In this document: in pieces, positions 18,595-25,690 of the stretch | How positions within the stretch are numbered: the first letter of the stretch is position 1 | How the letters are laid out: every line of letters begins with the position of its first letter | From: a virus | Direction: 5' to 3' (one strand) | Length of the DNA: 28,736 nucleotides | IMG/VR virus record: IMGVR_UViG_3300047994_000204 | Span: 1 to 28,736 of that record | Notes under the pieces: model-generated | Told to the model about the DNA's origin: nothing | The model's input: only the letters and a program-made list of their open reading frames with translations | The model's database searches: none | Position numbers and translations under genes: made by a program

Positions 18595-18642
18595 CTTCTC
18601 AGACGCAACGAAGTATCGGTAATCGCAAGAGGAATGACGAAA

Positions 18643-20262
18643 ATGGCAGCAGCTTCCCATAACACCTTGGGTTCGACCAGCACCACCAAACTCGACTTTT
18701 GGGTCAAGCACAATAAGAACGTGCTTTTTGTTGGAAAGCATGGTGTTGGTAAGACAAGTATGGTAAAGCAAACATTTGATCGTCACAAGCTCAAGTGGCA
18801 ATATTTTTCGGCATCCACGATGGACCCGTGGGTGGACTTTGTGGGTGTGCCGAAGGAAAAGACCGATAACAAGGTGCCGGAACAATTCGAGATTATCAAG
18901 GAACTTGCCAATATTGAATTGCCCCTCGCTTACGAATGGGTGCAAAGCAATTGGAAAATGAACGAGGAAGCTGCAAAAAAGATCGTCTCTCATGCTTTGA
19001 ACCGCAAGCAAGGTTTAACATATCTCGACCTTGTTCGCCCCCAAACTTTCGCTGCTGGGGAAGTCGAAGCCTTGTTCTTCGATGAGTACAACCGTTCACC
19101 TAAGAAGGTGCGGAATGCCGTGATGGAATTGATTCAGTTCAAATCTATCAACGGGATGAAATTCCCTAACCTTCGCTTCGTTTGGGCGGCAATTAACCCT
19201 GATGATGACGAAAGTGAAACCTACGATGTTGAGCGGCTCGATCCGGCTCAAGCTGACCGGTATCATGTGACTACGCTTATTCCTTATAAGCCGAACGCAG
19301 AGTGGTTCCGCACTGAATATGGGCAGCGAGTTGCTGATGCAGCAATTCAGTGGTGGGAAGATTTGAATGACGAAGAAAAGAATCTCATTAGCCCTCGGCG
19401 GCTTCAATATGCTCTGGATATTTACCGTGAACGTGGCGATATGCGGGATATTCTCCCGTTTACCGTCAACGTCAGCAAGTTAAGCACGGCATTGAATACG
19501 GGTCCAATTACCGAAAAATTGGAAGCCCTGATGAACTCGAAGGATGTGACAGAAGCTCGCAATTTCCTTCAGAATGAGAATAACTACACTGCTGCCATGA
19601 AGTTTATTCCGAAGTCGGAAACTTTGACAGCGTACTTTATTCCGCTGCTGCCGAAAGAAAAAATGGCAGCACTGATGAACGATGATGATAAAACTTGTAG
19701 TTATATCATCAACAACACTGACAAAGTGCCAGTGTTCAAGGCGGTGTGCAAGGAAATTCTCAACGCCAAGACGAATGCTCGCTTGGAAAAGAAAATCCGC
19801 CGAGCCCTCACCGATAATCAAGAATTGGGGATGAAATTCAGCAGCGAAGGGGACTTAAATACTTCGCCGGCCGAATCGCATTTCAACAAAGCGAAAACTG
19901 GCTCCAAGAGTTGGACCGAAACCCTAACGGAGCTTAAAGCTGCTCCGCAAGATTCGGCTCAGCAACGGATTCAGGTTTACGAAAAGATTGCTTCTTCCAT
20001 CCCGGAGAAGCAAACGGCAGATGAGGCTTTACTGACACTGGAACTACTCAACACAGTATTCAGTGGAAATCAGTTTGCTTCAAGCATCGTGTCGAAACCG
20101 TTTGACAAACTGATGGGAATTGTCAACCACTGTGTTAGCGAAATTCATCGCAACACGGGTATGGATTGGTCAGGGATCATTAGTAAGCATGGTTCACGAT
20201 TCAAGGTGCTTCTTGAGAAGATTAAAGCGGGCGGGTTATTTTCCCACCTGCACACACCTTGA
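18643..20262 (+). CDS. MoxR-type AAA+ ATPase
   Basis: The protein has 539 residues. The AAA+ core is clear: Walker A GKHGVGKTS (31-39), Walker B ALFFDEYNR with D147-E148, sensor-1 WAAINPD near 181-187, and LDPAQADRYHV with the arginine that closes the MoxR-type site. ISPRRLQYALDIY serves as sensor-2. A C-terminal helical region of about 280 residues follows, without known motifs. MoxR ATPases remodel partner proteins, often with a VWA protein encoded next door, as is the case here. The GAGG site fits the ATG at 18643 (10 bases); the ATG at 18634 would leave one base. The gene has its own terminator-promoter before and after it, unlike a typical two-gene operon. Confidence 0.85.
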   Translation: MAAASHNTLGSTSTTKLDFWVKHNKNVLFVGKHGVGKTSMVKQTFDRHKLKWQYFSASTMDPWVDFVGVPKEKTDNKVPEQFEIIKELANIELPLAYEWVQSNWKMNEEAAKKIVSHALNRKQGLTYLDLVRPQTFAAGEVEALFFDEYNRSPKKVRNAVMELIQFKSINGMKFPNLRFVWAAINPDDDESETYDVERLDPAQADRYHVTTLIPYKPNAEWFRTEYGQRVADAAIQWWEDLNDEEKNLISPRRLQYALDIYRERGDMRDILPFTVNVSKLSTALNTGPITEKLEALMNSKDVTEARNFLQNENNYTAAMKFIPKSETLTAYFIPLLPKEKMAALMNDDDKTCSYIINNTDKVPVFKAVCKEILNAKTNARLEKKIRRALTDNQELGMKFSSEGDLNTSPAESHFNKAKTGSKSWTETLTELKAAPQDSAQQRIQVYEKIASSIPEKQTADEALLTLELLNTVFSGNQFASSIVSKPFDKLMGIVNHCVSEIHRNTGMDWSGIISKHGSRFKVLLEKIKAGGLFSHLHTP

Positions 20263-20263
20263 G

Positions 20264-20292
20264 TGTACAGTGAGCAAAAAACGTGGTATAAT
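20264..20292 (+). promoter_or_regulatory. Sigma70-like promoter for VWA gene
   Basis: TGTACA, 17 bases, a perfect TATAAT, with CGTGG before the -10. It starts one base after the MoxR stop codon. The -10 overlaps the left arm of the hairpin at 20291-20317. Confidence 0.82.
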
Positions 20293-20317
20293 GGGGTCAG
20301 CTAAGTGCCGACCCCAT
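20291..20317 (+). terminator. Hairpin overlapping the -10 box
   Basis: An 8-base stem (ATGGGGTC with GACCCCAT), 11-base loop, followed by TTTCC. Read-through from the MoxR gene would meet it as a terminator-like structure. Transcripts starting at the promoter would begin in or just after its left arm and so carry a 5' hairpin. Confidence 0.55.
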
Positions 20318-20337
20318 TTCCTTTATAAAGGCATAAA

Positions 20338-21726
20338 ATGGACGATACTCGTGGTGCGGCAAACGATGAAGCTCTCGGTGTTGCCGAAGATAATACTCTC
20401 GATGTAGCTTCGTCAGCTAAGCACAAAGTTCGCATTTCAAACGAAGAATGGTTTGAAATCAGCTTAGCGTTGGAACCTCACCACGCTGTTTTCTATAAAG
20501 TTTGGCAAATGGGGAAGCCTATTTTCAACGATCAAATTGAAACCGCTGCTGTTCAATTTGATGAAAATGGCGAGTTTATTTGGTTTCACTTCAACCCGCA
20601 TTTCTGGAAGCGGCTTCAATTCAAGGATAAGCTTTTTGTAATTTGCCATGAAGCACTGCATATCGTGCTGAATCACGGCGTAAGAACCCGTGATTGTGGA
20701 AGAAAGAATAGTCAAGCAGTCAATGTCGCACTAGACGTTGTTGTCAACCACACGTTGGTCAACAATTTTGGTTTCAATAAAGCCGAAATTGAAGGATGGC
20801 AGGACTATTGCTGGGTGGATACGGTTTTCAAGGATAAAAAACCTCTGCCGCCAGAAAATGAACAATATGAATTCTACTACAACCTTTTCGAGAAGGTTTA
20901 CGGCGACGGTGGTCCAGGCGATGGCGAGAATGGTGGTCCTGGGCTAGTGGACGACCACGAAATGATGGGAGAAGGTTCTGGAGATTGGAGCAAAGTAATC
21001 GATGAATTGAATGAAGGTCTTTCTCAAGAAGAGAAGGAATCACTCAAGTCAACGGTCAACAAACACTTTCAGCAACCGCCACCGAAAGACCCTAAAAAGA
21101 ACCAAAAAGCTGGGTCTGGTACGGGTGGACAATGGGTGTTTACTAACGTCGGGAGAGTCAAAAAGAAGCAAAAATGGGAAACCGTAATCAAAAAATGGAG
21201 TCGAAAGTATCTAATCGACAAAGATAAGGATATTGAACAGTGGGCAAGGGTAAATCGTCGCATGAATATGTTGCCTAGCAATATGTTCTTGCCGACCGAA
21301 ATGGAAGTTGAGGATGAAGATAAAGAAAAAACTCGCATTGACGTGTGGTTCTACTTAGACACGTCAGGTTCTTGTTGGGGACTCAAGGATCGATTCTTCG
21401 CTGCTGCTTTGAGTCTTCCAACGGAGAAATTCAATGTCCGGTTGTTCTGTTTCGACACCACAGTGCAAGAAACTACCCTTGAGAGTCGAAAAGTATACGG
21501 GGGTGGGGGCACAAGTTTTTCTATTCTGGAAGCTGAAATTCAGAAAGAAATAAACCAGGGGAAAATTACCAAATATCCAGAAGCAGTTTTCGTCATCACG
21601 GACGGATATGGCAATAATATCAAGCCAGAAAAACCAGAAAAATGGTACTGGTTTATTACGGAAGGTGGAGTGAAAAACTACATCGACCGCAACTGCAATT
21701 TTTACAATCTGAGCGAGTTTGAATAA
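20338..21726 (+). CDS. VWA protein with HEXXH metallopeptidase-like domain (DUF2201-type)
   Basis: The protein has 462 residues. The N-terminal half is a metallopeptidase-like domain: FVICHEALHIVLNHG places HEALH at 104-108, and a NVALDVVVNH helix about 25 residues later could give the third metal ligand. A Gly/Asp-rich and charged linker follows at about 195-290. The C-terminal half is a VWA domain with a complete metal-ion site: D341-T-S-G-S345, G388-GGG-T-S393, and T421-D-G423. VWA plus this peptidase-like domain next to a MoxR ATPase is a known bacterial pairing. The ATG has AAAGG at 6 bases. The protein is probably cytoplasmic; targets are unknown. Confidence 0.85.
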   Translation: MDDTRGAANDEALGVAEDNTLDVASSAKHKVRISNEEWFEISLALEPHHAVFYKVWQMGKPIFNDQIETAAVQFDENGEFIWFHFNPHFWKRLQFKDKLFVICHEALHIVLNHGVRTRDCGRKNSQAVNVALDVVVNHTLVNNFGFNKAEIEGWQDYCWVDTVFKDKKPLPPENEQYEFYYNLFEKVYGDGGPGDGENGGPGLVDDHEMMGEGSGDWSKVIDELNEGLSQEEKESLKSTVNKHFQQPPPKDPKKNQKAGSGTGGQWVFTNVGRVKKKQKWETVIKKWSRKYLIDKDKDIEQWARVNRRMNMLPSNMFLPTEMEVEDEDKEKTRIDVWFYLDTSGSCWGLKDRFFAAALSLPTEKFNVRLFCFDTTVQETTLESRKVYGGGGTSFSILEAEIQKEINQGKITKYPEAVFVITDGYGNNIKPEKPEKWYWFITEGGVKNYIDRNCNFYNLSEFE

Positions 21727-23181: not shown

Positions 23182-23211
23182 TGTACAACTCAAACTCCCC
23201 CGTGGTATAAT
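23182..23211 (+). promoter_or_regulatory. Sigma70-like promoter for ART-HD operon
   Basis: TGTACA, 18 bases, a perfect TATAAT, with CGTGG before the -10. The -10 lies inside the loop of the hairpin at 23192-23226. Confidence 0.82.
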
Positions 23212-23226
23212 CTCTGCGGGGAGTTT
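23192..23226 (+). terminator. Hairpin terminator enclosing the -10 box
   Basis: A 9-base stem (AAACTCCCC with GGGGAGTTT), 17-base loop, and a T after it. The loop contains CGTGGTATAAT. It ends the AcrVA2-like transcript and at the same time carries the promoter of the next operon. Confidence 0.6.
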
Positions 23227-23248
23227 TGTGTTTGCAATGAGGCGTATC

Positions 23249-24382
23249 ATGACGTTGGATAAAGACTTCATGGAAATCCTGCAACGGCAGGAAGAGTTGC
23301 ATCCTGATTTGGTGCCTTGGATTCAAAACGCTTCATTTGGGAAAATGCTAAAGCATCCTTTGGTGTTTAGCATGTTTTATCATCCTGGCATGAATGCTTT
23401 GACCAATGAACAGTATAAACACAAATTAAAAGCTCTCGAAGAAGCAAAAAAGAACAAAAAGTGGGCATCTTATATTTGGATTCACGAACGGCCGCACCGT
23501 TTGGAAAAGTTTGCCGAAATTCAAAAAGAACTAAGCGACGAAGAATATTGGGAATTACTTGGCAGCATTTGGTCTGATAGTGAAAATCTTTGGCAATATG
23601 GTTCGTTGCTGGGCTTTCTTGTCAATATTGGTCGTCCTGGGCGGGAAGCCATGATGGATGATCGAGAGAAAGCATTTTTGGATAAATTACCGGATCAATT
23701 TGTTATTCACCGTGGGCATCAAAACAGAAATCGTCTGGGATATTCCTGGTCGCTGAGTTATTGGCGGGCCAAATGGTTCGCCCAACGATACCAACAGAAG
23801 AGTCAAGGAATCGTATCTGCTTTAGTGAATAAAAAAGATGTAATTGCAGTATTATTGGGTCGCAACGAATTTGAAGTAGTTGCTTCACCAAGAAATTTGG
23901 AAATTAAAACAAATCGCAAGACCGTTCGCCCAGATTGGTTGGAGGCGGCAAAAAAAGAATTTGAAAAGACATACGTTCTGGGGAAACAATCCTATCATGG
24001 ACCTTGGCATTGGGAAAAAGTTGAGAAAAATGCATTAGCCTTAGCCAAGAAAACAAAAGGTGCCGACAAGGAAGTTGTTCAGTTATTTGCCTTGATTCAC
24101 GATACCAAGCGGGAAAACGAAGACCAAGACCCAGAACACGGGCACCGGTCTGCCAAATATGCCGAAATGTTGTTCAATATGGGTAAATTCCCAATTACTA
24201 AACAACAACTGTATCTTTTGATGGAAGCATGTAAGTATCACAACGATGGAAAAGTATCCAACAATCCCACCATTGGGGTCTGTTGGGATGCTGATCGTTT
24301 GGACCTTACGAGAGTTGGCATAATTCCCGACCCCGAATTGCTCTCTACACAAGCGGGCAAGGAGCTTATGTGGAAAATCTGA
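23249..24382 (+). CDS. ADP-ribosyltransferase-like / HD-domain fusion
   Basis: The protein has 377 residues; the ATG at 23249 has GAGG 6 bases upstream, better than earlier in-frame starts. The N-terminal half carries the R-S-E pattern of ADP-ribosyltransferases: HRG (R155), the SWS triad at 166-168, an AKWFAQRY helix, and an ExE pair in GRNEFEVV (E207, E209). The C-terminal half is an HD hydrolase: HGPWHWEKVEKNAL near 250, LIHDTKR near 282-288, PEHGHRSA near 295, CKYHNDG near 328, CWDADRLDLTRVGI near 345. It is the first gene of a four-gene coupled operon. It could modify and then process a host molecule, but no substrate is indicated. Confidence 0.75.
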   Translation: MTLDKDFMEILQRQEELHPDLVPWIQNASFGKMLKHPLVFSMFYHPGMNALTNEQYKHKLKALEEAKKNKKWASYIWIHERPHRLEKFAEIQKELSDEEYWELLGSIWSDSENLWQYGSLLGFLVNIGRPGREAMMDDREKAFLDKLPDQFVIHRGHQNRNRLGYSWSLSYWRAKWFAQRYQQKSQGIVSALVNKKDVIAVLLGRNEFEVVASPRNLEIKTNRKTVRPDWLEAAKKEFEKTYVLGKQSYHGPWHWEKVEKNALALAKKTKGADKEVVQLFALIHDTKRENEDQDPEHGHRSAKYAEMLFNMGKFPITKQQLYLLMEACKYHNDGKVSNNPTIGVCWDADRLDLTRVGIIPDPELLSTQAGKELMWKI

Positions 24383-24945
24383 ACCGTGTCTTAATTGGAA
24401 CCGGCCACTTCACTTGGGATGCCGTTGAACGCCGAACAGATCGTTACGGTTCTGTTCGCTTGAAAACAGACAAAGATAAAAATGTTCTATTCGACACAGC
24501 CCTGGATAAACTGGAAGGTAAAAGAGGGCGGTTAGTTGCAGAAGTGCTCATTCCAGTGAAATCATCACATCCGGGTGATATAGCACGGGGTATCAAACCA
24601 AGTACCCCAGACAAAGGGGAAAATGTCGTTTTGGGGCATGGCGAATTATTCATCGAACATCGAGGGCAAGCAGAACACGAGAAAGCAGCCCACGAAAGAG
24701 CGGATGACGAAATGCATGAGGCAATGAATCAAGCATTTGCAAAAATGGGGATCAAAGTAAAATTATCCAAAAGTGGGCAAGCTGGCAACCCTCTGAAACT
24801 CAGAGAACCCCCGGCAGAAGTTTATGATCTTGTAGGGTTGAAACCAGCTAATGGAAGAGAAACTGATTGGTTATTTCCTCGCAGCTTTTATCGTCTGCAT
24901 ATGTCTAAAGTAAACTTATATTTTGAGGAAGAAAATGGGCCTTGA
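24370..24945 (+). CDS. Unknown protein, coupled to ART-HD gene
   Basis: The protein has 191 residues from a GTG with AAGGAG 5 bases upstream, overlapping the ART-HD gene by 13 bases. The middle has a beta-rich stretch VAEVLIPVKSSHPGD then a ENVVLGHGELFI strand, and a helical insert (about 100-130, many Glu, Ala and His). The end (VGLKP-NGRETDWLFPRSFYRLH, then VNLYFEE) looks conserved. I recall similar C-termini in bacterial and phage proteins, but not a function. Its 3' end overlaps the three-Cys gene. The constant neighbourhood suggests a shared role. Confidence 0.65.
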   Translation: MENLNRVLIGTGHFTWDAVERRTDRYGSVRLKTDKDKNVLFDTALDKLEGKRGRLVAEVLIPVKSSHPGDIARGIKPSTPDKGENVVLGHGELFIEHRGQAEHEKAAHERADDEMHEAMNQAFAKMGIKVKLSKSGQAGNPLKLREPPAEVYDLVGLKPANGRETDWLFPRSFYRLHMSKVNLYFEEENGP

Positions 24946-25690
24946 AACTGGCATTTCTTGGACCGACCACACTTTCAATCCAGTTTGGGGATGCGAAAAA
25001 GTATCCCCAGCTTGTGATAATTGTTATGCCGAAGTATTCGCCCATCGAATGGGATTGGATATTTGGGACGACAAAAAAGAAGGAAAAACTGGTTCTCCCA
25101 GAAGGACATTTGAACAAAAACACTGGAACGAACCGCTCAAGTGGCAAAAAAAAGCTGTCAAAGAAGGCAAACGGCATCGAGTGTTTTGCGGTTCCATGTG
25201 TGATTGGGCAGAAGATCATCCAACTGTCATTGGGCAACTACCCAAACTTTGGGACTTGATTCGTGCCACGCCCATGCTAGACTGGCAGCTTTTGACCAAA
25301 CGCCCGCATCGCATCGCTCAAAGCCTCCCCAAAGATTGGGGAACAGGATACGATAATGTCTGGCTTGGCACAACAGTTGAAAACAACCATTACGTCAAGC
25401 GTGCTGCCCAACTAATTTCCAATCCAGCTAAGGTTCACTTTATCAGCTACGAACCGGCTCTTGGTCCCTTGGACAAGCTGGACCTGACAGACATAGAATG
25501 GGTCATTTACGGTGGGGAGAGTGGAGCGAAACGGCGTCCGGAAGACTTGAATTGGGCCAGGGACATGAAAGCTCGTTGCGAAGCCGCAGGAGTTGCTTTC
25601 TGGTTCAAACAAACTTCTGGTCTTTATTCGGGTACTACTCCAACATTGGATGGAGAAGAAATTCACCGATTTCCACTGGAGTTAATCTAA
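24935..25690 (+). CDS. Gp37/Gp68-type three-cysteine protein (DUF5131)
   Basis: The protein has 251 residues from the ATG at 24935, with GAGGAAG upstream. The family signature is complete: ISWTDHTFNPVWGCEKVSPACDNCYAE, with Cys20, Cys27 and Cys30 (CX6CX2C). It continues with a FCGSMCDWAEDH block near 90, LLTKRPHRI near 122, WLGTTVENN near 145, FISYEPALGPLD near 172, and WVIYGGESG near 189. Family members resemble radical-SAM proteins in fold and cysteine pattern, but no reaction is established that I know of. It overlaps both neighbours and is therefore co-translated. Catalytic activity is inferred only from the motif. Confidence 0.88.
   Translation: MGLETGISWTDHTFNPVWGCEKVSPACDNCYAEVFAHRMGLDIWDDKKEGKTGSPRRTFEQKHWNEPLKWQKKAVKEGKRHRVFCGSMCDWAEDHPTVIGQLPKLWDLIRATPMLDWQLLTKRPHRIAQSLPKDWGTGYDNVWLGTTVENNHYVKRAAQLISNPAKVHFISYEPALGPLDKLDLTDIEWVIYGGESGAKRRPEDLNWARDMKARCEAAGVAFWFKQTSGLYSGTTPTLDGEEIHRFPLELI

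What the first reader, a model, noticed from the sequence alone, without database searches (positions are those of the whole stretch)
23249..24382. ADP-ribosyltransferase-like domain fused to an HD hydrolase
R155, S166 and E207/E209 follow the R-S-ExE pattern of ADP-ribosyltransferases, and five HD-family motifs follow in order in the same chain. Modifying and hydrolysing activities in one protein is unusual and could be a two-step effector or a self-limiting toxin. It leads an operon with a three-Cys protein.
Basis: partly seen in the sequence, partly recalled or inferred. Interest (0 to 1): 0.75.

Follow-up and report, generated by a model that had tools for sequence, protein, structure and literature searches.

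The report
Phage ADP-ribosylating-like and phosphohydrolase fusion enzyme
Large tailed phages carry one protein that joins a compact enzyme domain predicted to use NAD to attach ADP-ribose to a metal-dependent hydrolase domain of a family that repeatedly turns up beside NAD and ADP-ribose enzymes, which suggests that the phage makes and then trims an ADP-ribose product with a single protein.

Summary
The 377-aa ORF is real. Full-length fusions occur in at least six lineages of viral contigs, up to 532 kb, and form one clade of the N-terminal-domain tree (100/99).

The N-terminal domain is phrog_4776 (unknown function, no Pfam family). R155, S166, R205, E207 and E209 are invariant in 41 relatives. 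The AlphaFold model (pLDDT 93) puts them on or beside strands 1, 2 and 5 of a compact ADP-ribosyltransferase (ART)-like core. No PDB hit is individually significant, but the best-ranked hits are mostly ART-fold proteins. R-to-S spacing is only 11 residues.

The C-terminal half is an HD phosphohydrolase with all six dinuclear-metal residues conserved. New here: this HD family keeps turning up with NAD/ADP-ribose enzymes: fused to ART-like domains in up to four other architectures, and next to a sirtuin, ARPP-1 or a NadM-Nudix gene.

Best explanation (0.45): the ART domain makes an ADP-ribosylated product and the HD domain hydrolyses a phosphate bond in it. Substrate, order of steps and a 'toxin' role are inferred. 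Legionella SidE (mART plus HD-like phosphodiesterase) is the mechanistic precedent. DUF5131 coupling is not conserved. New variant of a known kind.

The parts
23249..24382 (+). Fusion gene, 377 aa: ART-like domain + HD phosphohydrolase (in-frame GTG alternative start at 23228)
   Evidence: full-length relatives in at least six viral lineages
23249..23689 (+). Residues 1-147: conserved helical N-terminal part of the phrog_4776 domain (HPL36-38, E80, P82, R84, Y100-W101, W108, E112-N113)
   Evidence: phrog_4776 E=2.5e-69 over residues 8-221; conserved columns; helices in the model
23690..23914 (+). Residues 148-222: compact ART-like core, b1 150-157, b2 166-168, helix 171-179, b3 187-194, b4 198-202, b5 209-212, b6 217-221
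   Evidence: Model pLDDT 93.4, pTM 0.86; PDB fold search
23711..23713 (+). R155 codon (strand 1, predicted NAD-binding Arg of an R-S-E ART)
   Evidence: Invariant in 41 sequences; His in the Agrobacterium plasmid relative
23744..23746 (+). S166 codon (strand 2, S-W-T/S motif)
   Evidence: Invariant in 41 sequences
23861..23875 (+). R205-x-E207-x-E209 (ExE motif at strand 5; E209 predicted catalytic)
   Evidence: Invariant in 41 sequences
23990..24379 (+). Residues 248-377: HD phosphohydrolase domain
   Evidence: PDB HD hydrolases 3djb, 2qgs, 2pq7, foldseek 2pq7 E=1.1e-3, phrog_3921 9e-6, 14-sequence alignment A7
24008..24295 (+). HD metal-ligand set H254, H284-D285, H297, H331, D349 (plus H250 and D347)
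   Evidence: All invariant in A7; matches the dinuclear H...HD...H...H...D motif of PMC8177086
23182..23226 (+). Promoter-like TGTACA-18-TATAAT inside/next to a terminator-like hairpin, directly upstream of the fusion gene
   Evidence: z -3.4; same layout with changed stem bases in L001-L003
20264..20320 (+). Second copy of the promoter/hairpin layout (TGTACA-17-TATAAT, GGGGTC...GACCCC) before the vWA gene
18634..20262 (+). AAA+ (MoxR-like) ATPase, conserved upstream neighbour
   Evidence: phrog_1297; synteny in L001, L003, L006
20338..21726 (+). DUF2201-type metallopeptidase + vWA protein, conserved upstream neighbour
   Evidence: PF13203; synteny; MoxR-vWA pair of jumbo phages in PMC7824862
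21719..23176 (+). 485-aa protein of unknown function, conserved upstream neighbour
   Evidence: Synteny in L001-L003, L006, L028
24370..24945 (+). 191-aa protein of unknown function overlapping the fusion gene by 13 bp
   Evidence: homologue downstream in L001 and L002 only
24923..25690 (+).
   Evidence: PF07505 3e-70; among the fusion lineages found near the fusion only in L028

Best explanation
A phage-encoded two-domain enzyme. The N-terminal domain is a compact R-S-ExE ADP-ribosyltransferase that uses NAD+ to put ADP-ribose on a host molecule or small ligand; the C-terminal dinuclear-metal HD domain hydrolyses a phosphate bond in that ADP-ribose product (for example ADP-ribosyl to phosphoribosyl plus AMP, or a phosphorylated ADP-ribose to ADP-ribose). 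Shown: the fusion, invariant active-site-type residues in both halves, the predicted folds, purifying selection, and the recurrent link of this HD family to NAD/ADP-ribose enzymes. Inferred: catalytic activity, that the HD substrate is the ART product, the target, and use during infection.
For: ART: R155, S166, R205, E207, E209 invariant in 41 diverse relatives; residues lie on or beside strands 1, 2 and 5 of a model with pLDDT 93.4; PDB fold search of that model ranks IcmQ, TreX, CNFy, TreTu, cholera/LT A and Tse6 among its best hits, which to my knowledge are ART-fold. HD: best sequence and fold hits are HD hydrolases, H...HD...H...H...D set invariant, a motif diagnostic of dinuclear HD phosphatases such as YqeK (PMC8177086). 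Coupling: the same or a related HD is fused to ART-like domains in Pontibacillus and Jeotgalibacillus megaplasmids (N-terminal-domain profile E=1e-17 to 1e-21); this HD is fused to divergent YRG-type or ART-PolyVal-like N-termini in Variovorax plasmids, Bradyrhizobium L156 and L200 (weak: PF18760 E 0.12-0.18); it sits directly downstream of a Sir2 gene in an Aliarcobacter plasmid, of ARPP-1 in two unrelated gammaproteobacterial groups (ARPP-1 base rate about 1%), and one small gene after a NadM-like/Nudix gene in a Vibrio phage. Iyer et al. 2022 list an HD phosphatase among the partners of ADP-ribosylglycohydrolase systems (PMC9503650). SidE enzymes join mART and HD-like PDE on one ADP-ribose product (PMC6941232).
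Against: No PDB hit for the N-terminal domain is individually significant (best E 0.27); profile comparison with single T4 ModA and ModB sequences is not significant. R-to-S spacing is 11 residues against 24 in ModA (counted). Most relatives of the N-terminal domain have no HD, and most of the HD family is standalone, so neither strictly needs the other. No NAD or metal binding was tested.
Confidence: 0.45

Rival explanations
1. Two unrelated host-takeover activities fused for co-expression or co-delivery: the ART modifies a host protein, and the HD domain hydrolyses an unrelated nucleotide (Ap4A, dNTP or an alarmone).
For: The nearest characterised HD relatives are nucleotide hydrolases (YqeK type 2o08; YqeK and YpgQ chemistry in PMC8177086). 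Both domains occur alone in phages and bacteria. Phage polyvalent proteins join unrelated effectors (PMC5512222).
Against: The HD family is associated with NAD/ADP-ribose enzymes in several separate contexts, more than chance co-delivery predicts.
Confidence: 0.22
2. Self-limiting or proofreading enzyme: the HD domain removes or destroys the ART product to restrict its own activity.
For: Opposed activities in one chain; DupA/DupB show an HD-like PDE reversing the product of an mART-PDE pathway (PMC6941232).
Against: No toxin/antitoxin context; the fusion is kept in phage tail and assembly regions and standalone N-terminal domains without HD are abundant, so the N-terminal domain evidently does not require a limiter.
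Confidence: 0.15
3. The ART-like domain is an NADase or NAD+ phosphorylase making a small ADP-ribose derivative, and the HD domain clears it or converts it to a signal; a metabolic or anti-superinfection device rather than a macromolecule modifier.
For: Tse6, among the fold hits, is an ART-fold NADase (own knowledge); RES-type phage ARTs make ADPr-1''-P (PMC9503650); Mesh1-type HD enzymes act on NADPH (PMC9765508 abstract).
Against: The invariant ExE (rather than a single Glu or Asn) is typical of transferases (own knowledge); Iyer et al. find NADase ARTs under-represented in viruses.
Confidence: 0.1
4. The N-terminal domain is a catalytically inactive ART-like module that binds NAD, nucleotide or a partner protein and regulates or targets the HD domain.
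For: IcmQ, the top fold hit, is to my knowledge an NAD-binding ART-like domain without transferase activity; the R-S spacing is unusually short.
Against: The full R, S and ExE set is invariant, which a binding-only module would not need.
Confidence: 0.08

Closest known systems
phrog_4776 (PHROGs family of unknown function; mycobacteriophage and Gordonia phage proteins such as Vagabond gp79)
   Same: Whole N-terminal domain, 35-41% identity, same invariant R, S, RxExE
   Different: Standalone 210-250 aa proteins without HD; never annotated as ARTs in the records seen
Legionella SidE family (mART + HD-like PDE; PMC6941232)
   Same: An mART and an HD-like phosphodiesterase in one chain; the two steps act on one ADP-ribose product
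   Different: Order is PDE then mART and the chain far larger (own knowledge); PDE catalysis uses H277/E340/H407 with a His intermediate, whereas here a metal-binding HD set is kept; the target is eukaryotic ubiquitin
T4 ModA/ModB (R-S-E clade phage ARTs)
   Same: Phage-encoded; RG, S-motif and ExE in the same order
   Different: No significant profile similarity, longer R-S and S-E spacing, no HD domain
YqeK / YpgQ HD phosphohydrolases (2o08; 3djb, 2qgs, 3dto)
   Same: HD fold and motif order; H-x3-H as in YpgQ and the extra two His as in YqeK
   Different: Distinct sequence family (CWDADRLDLxRVG), mostly standalone in bacteria, substrate unknown
ARG/ARPP ADP-ribose processing systems (PMC9503650)
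   Same: HD phosphatases reported among the partners; here the HD family sits next to ARPP-1 in two bacterial groups
   Different: Those are predicted host counter-measures and hold no ART; the phage protein fuses an ART-like domain
KptA-Nudix fusion of Bodo saltans virus (PMC9503650)
   Same: ART fused to a hydrolase proposed to process its ADP-ribose product
   Different: KptA is an RNA 2'-phosphotransferase of the H-H-h clade; Nudix instead of HD

Membership tests
R-S-E clade ADP-ribosyltransferases | Arg on strand 1, Ser (STS-like) on strand 2, ExE at strand 5, in this order | tested here: met
   R155 in 150-157, S166 in 166-168, E207/E209 at the start of 209-212; invariant in 41 sequences
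R-S-E clade ADP-ribosyltransferases | ART split-sheet fold | tested here: inconclusive
   Best-ranked PDB hits of the model are mostly ART-fold proteins but none is significant alone (best E 0.27)
R-S-E clade ADP-ribosyltransferases | Sequence or profile similarity to a known ART family | tested here: not met
   No Pfam ART family matches; hhalign against single T4 ModA and ModB sequences not significant
R-S-E clade ADP-ribosyltransferases | NAD+-dependent transfer of ADP-ribose | not testable with these tools
   Needs a biochemical assay
HD-domain metal phosphohydrolases | H...HD...D metal-ligand motif | tested here: met
   H254, H284-D285, D349 invariant
HD-domain metal phosphohydrolases | HD fold | tested here: met
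   Foldseek 2pq7 E=1.1e-3 prob 1.00, 2o08, 2qgs and others; phmmer 3djb E=0.0015
HD-domain metal phosphohydrolases | Extra two His for a dinuclear site (YqeK type) | tested here: met
   H297 and H331 invariant; motif from PMC8177086
HD-domain metal phosphohydrolases | Pfam PF01966 gathering score | tested here: not met
   14.0 bits against a cut-off of 22; a divergent subfamily, while fold and motif are met
SidE-type mART-PDE enzymes | mART and PDE domains in one chain | tested here: met
   ART-like + HD in one ORF
SidE-type mART-PDE enzymes | Sequence similarity of the PDE to SidE/Dup, catalytic H-E-H | tested here: not met
   No sequence hit to SidE/Sde chains in the PDB search; weak fold hits only (6b7p E 0.33, 7pqe E 0.39); canonical metal HD set instead
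SidE-type mART-PDE enzymes | ADP-ribosyl to phosphoribosyl conversion and transfer to serine | not testable with these tools
   Biochemistry needed

The most novel reading that the evidence does not exclude
A phage protein that installs ADP-ribose on a bacterial target and, with its own metal-dependent HD domain, trims it to phosphoribose or joins it to a second molecule: a prokaryotic, metal-dependent counterpart of SidE chemistry, and first member of a wider ART-HD class in which one HD family is the dedicated ADP-ribose hydrolase of bacteria and phages.
Probability: 0.15. Interest if true: 0.9.

Novelty: new variant of a known kind. Interest (0 to 1): 0.6.

Why it matters
It gives a testable function to a phage family of unknown function found in over a hundred sequenced phages (phrog_4776), and to a bacterial HD family with more than 568 hits that has no specific Pfam model, only sub-threshold matches to the general HD model. 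If the HD domain processes ADP-ribose products, phages and bacteria would have a further, metal-dependent class of ADP-ribose hydrolases beside macrodomains, ADP-ribosylglycohydrolases, NADAR and Nudix, and the fusion would be a compact model of making and processing an ADP-ribose product in one chain.

Tried and rejected
Toxin-antitoxin module: no antitoxin-like neighbour, and conserved neighbours are virion-assembly type genes. DUF5131 as partner: near the fusion in only two of the lineages examined (window and L028). Membership in a Pfam ART family: no match in 30 members. Profile comparison with single T4 ModA/ModB sequences: not significant, although the short local pairings do put the S motif (ModA) and the RG motif (ModB) in register. 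Chance ORF or recent accidental fusion: rejected by synteny, tree and pN far below pS. First genome-contig scan with the N-terminal-domain alignment found no confirmed relative, so cellular chromosomal relatives of that domain were not sampled; relatives were seen on plasmids. Full-length fold search returned only HD hits, so the N-terminal domain was folded and searched alone. PADLOC: no hit for the fusion protein. A paper search for CNFy and IcmQ as ART-like folds found no confirming text in the library, so those assignments rest on my own knowledge; one review notes no NAD binding by purified CNFy.

Full report
What is there. The window is a 28.7-kb virus record. Tail sheath, tube, sheath stabiliser and baseplate hub genes place it in a contractile-tailed phage, and the relatives lie on contigs up to 532 kb. 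The ORF at 23249-24382 encodes 377 aa. It follows an AAA+ ATPase, a metallopeptidase/vWA protein and a 485-aa protein, in an order kept in L001, L003 and L006. A MoxR AAA+/vWA-peptidase pair of this kind is described in jumbo phages and proposed to act in virion assembly (PMC7824862).

N-terminal domain. Residues 8-221 match phrog_4776 (E=2.5e-69), a PHROG of unknown function, and mycobacteriophage, Gordonia phage and plasmid proteins at about 30-41% identity. No Pfam family matches it in any of 30 members. In 41 relatives 24 columns are invariant, including R155, G156, G164, S166, A174, F177, R180, R205, E207 and E209. In a more distant set the Agrobacterium plasmid copy has His at the R155 position. 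The domain model has pLDDT 93.4 and pTM 0.86. After a helical region the core runs strand 1 (R155), strand 2 (S166), helix, strands 3 and 4, strand 5 (E207/E209), strand 6: the order expected of an R-S-E ART lacking the usual stretch between strands 1 and 2.

Fold comparison. No PDB match reaches E 0.001. The ranking is nevertheless telling: IcmQ, three TreX chains, CNFy, TreTu, cholera toxin A and Tse6 make up most of the first 19 rows, and cholera/LT A chains recur down to row 50. From my own knowledge these are ART-fold domains; I could not confirm IcmQ or CNFy in the paper library. I put the ART fold at about 0.85. Similarity to single T4 ModA and ModB sequences was not significant.

HD domain. 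Residues 248-377 match HD hydrolases by sequence (3djb E=0.0015) and fold (2pq7 E=1.1e-3, then 2o08, 2qgs and others), although the Pfam HD model stays below its cut-off. Across 14 relatives H250, H254, H284, D285, H297, H331, D347 and D349 are invariant. A review gives H...HD...H...H...D as the mark of a dinuclear site, with YqeK as the phosphatase example (PMC8177086). Which of D347 and D349 is the ligand is inferred from spacing.

The fusion. Full-length fusions occur in L001/L002, L003-L005, L006-L009, L028, L029 and L030. On a tree of 60 N-terminal domains the fused rows form one clade (100/99), so this fusion arose once and was kept. Non-synonymous change is low while synonymous change is near or beyond saturation in both halves (pN about 0.13-0.21 against pS 0.67-0.85, window against L001). 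None of the 113 INPHARED records with a match has one covering 80% of the query.

Links of the HD family to NAD/ADP-ribose enzymes. These are the main new evidence. (1) Pontibacillus and Jeotgalibacillus megaplasmids carry the N-terminal ART-like core (E=1e-17 and 1e-21 by a profile of the phage domain) fused to an HD domain more distant from the phage one. (2) Variovorax plasmid proteins join the same HD to an N-terminus with YRG motifs; no Pfam match. (3) L200 (468 aa) and Bradyrhizobium L156 join it to N-termini weakly like ART-PolyVal (E 0.12 and 0.18, below cut-off). (4) In an Aliarcobacter plasmid the HD gene directly follows a Sir2 gene (PF02146 6e-40). (5) In six loci, two independent groups with HDs about 50% identical, it directly follows ARPP-1, a family named for its association with ADP-ribosylglycohydrolases; ARPP-1 occurs in about 1% of sampled genomes and this HD family in about 1%. 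(6) In a Vibrio phage it lies one small gene after a cytidylyltransferase-like/Nudix gene. Items 2 and 3 are suggestive only. Most HD neighbours in bacteria show no such link, so the association is enriched, not universal.

Mechanism. I commit to a coupled enzyme: ART step on NAD+, then HD hydrolysis of a phosphate bond of the ADP-ribose product (0.45). Precedents are SidE enzymes, where an mART and an HD-like PDE act in turn on one product (PMC6941232), the KptA-Nudix fusion, and HD phosphatases in ADP-ribosylglycohydrolase systems (PMC9503650). ARTs are enriched in contractile-tailed phages and often lie near virion genes (PMC9503650), which fits this location; delivery with the virion is a guess. 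Shown: fusion, conservation, predicted folds, contexts. Inferred: activity, substrate, target, order of steps.

Operon. A terminator-like hairpin with an extended -10-like element lies at 23182-23226. The layout recurs in L001-L003 with changed stem bases that keep the pairing, and a second copy precedes the vWA gene. The fusion gene may therefore open a transcription unit, but the downstream partners vary: 24370-24945 is kept in L001 and L002, DUF5131 in L028 only.

Limits. Neighbour counts rest on 80 best-scoring loci and longest-ORF gene calls. One genome scan with the N-terminal-domain alignment found no relative, so its spread on bacterial chromosomes is unknown.

Noticed in passing
window 23182-23226 and 20264-20320; L001 5906, L002 2440, L003 5902: A repeated TGTACA-17/18-TATAAT promoter-like sequence combined with a hairpin, kept in relatives with changed stem bases; possibly a phage promoter/terminator module.
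   Followed up: partly
[quoted passage not shown]
   Followed up: no
L051 2819-5827: A 1003-aa viral protein with the ART-like domain embedded at residues 367-576 (E=1.8e-79), resembling a polyvalent protein.
   Followed up: partly
L155, L167, L172, L175, L191, L195: ARPP-1 gene directly upstream of a standalone HD gene in two unrelated gammaproteobacterial groups.
   Followed up: partly
L112 3193-8429: Aliarcobacter plasmid cluster Sir2, HD, PD-(D/E)XK nuclease, two DUF262 genes: looks like a possible defence cluster.
   Followed up: no
L129 4392-5423: DUF3293 fused to the same HD domain in a Spartobacteria genome.
   Followed up: no
L019 1-254 and 3863-4687: On a Photobacterium plasmid an ART-like relative lies within 4 kb of an annotated RNA 2'-phosphotransferase.
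   Followed up: no
window 20338-21726: PHROG label 'HNH endonuclease' (phrog_1314) conflicts with the Pfam metallopeptidase (DUF2201_N) match; the label is probably wrong.
   Followed up: no
L022 3-482 (Roseobacter phage CRP-901): The HD homologue at the record's end is not annotated as a gene.
   Followed up: no
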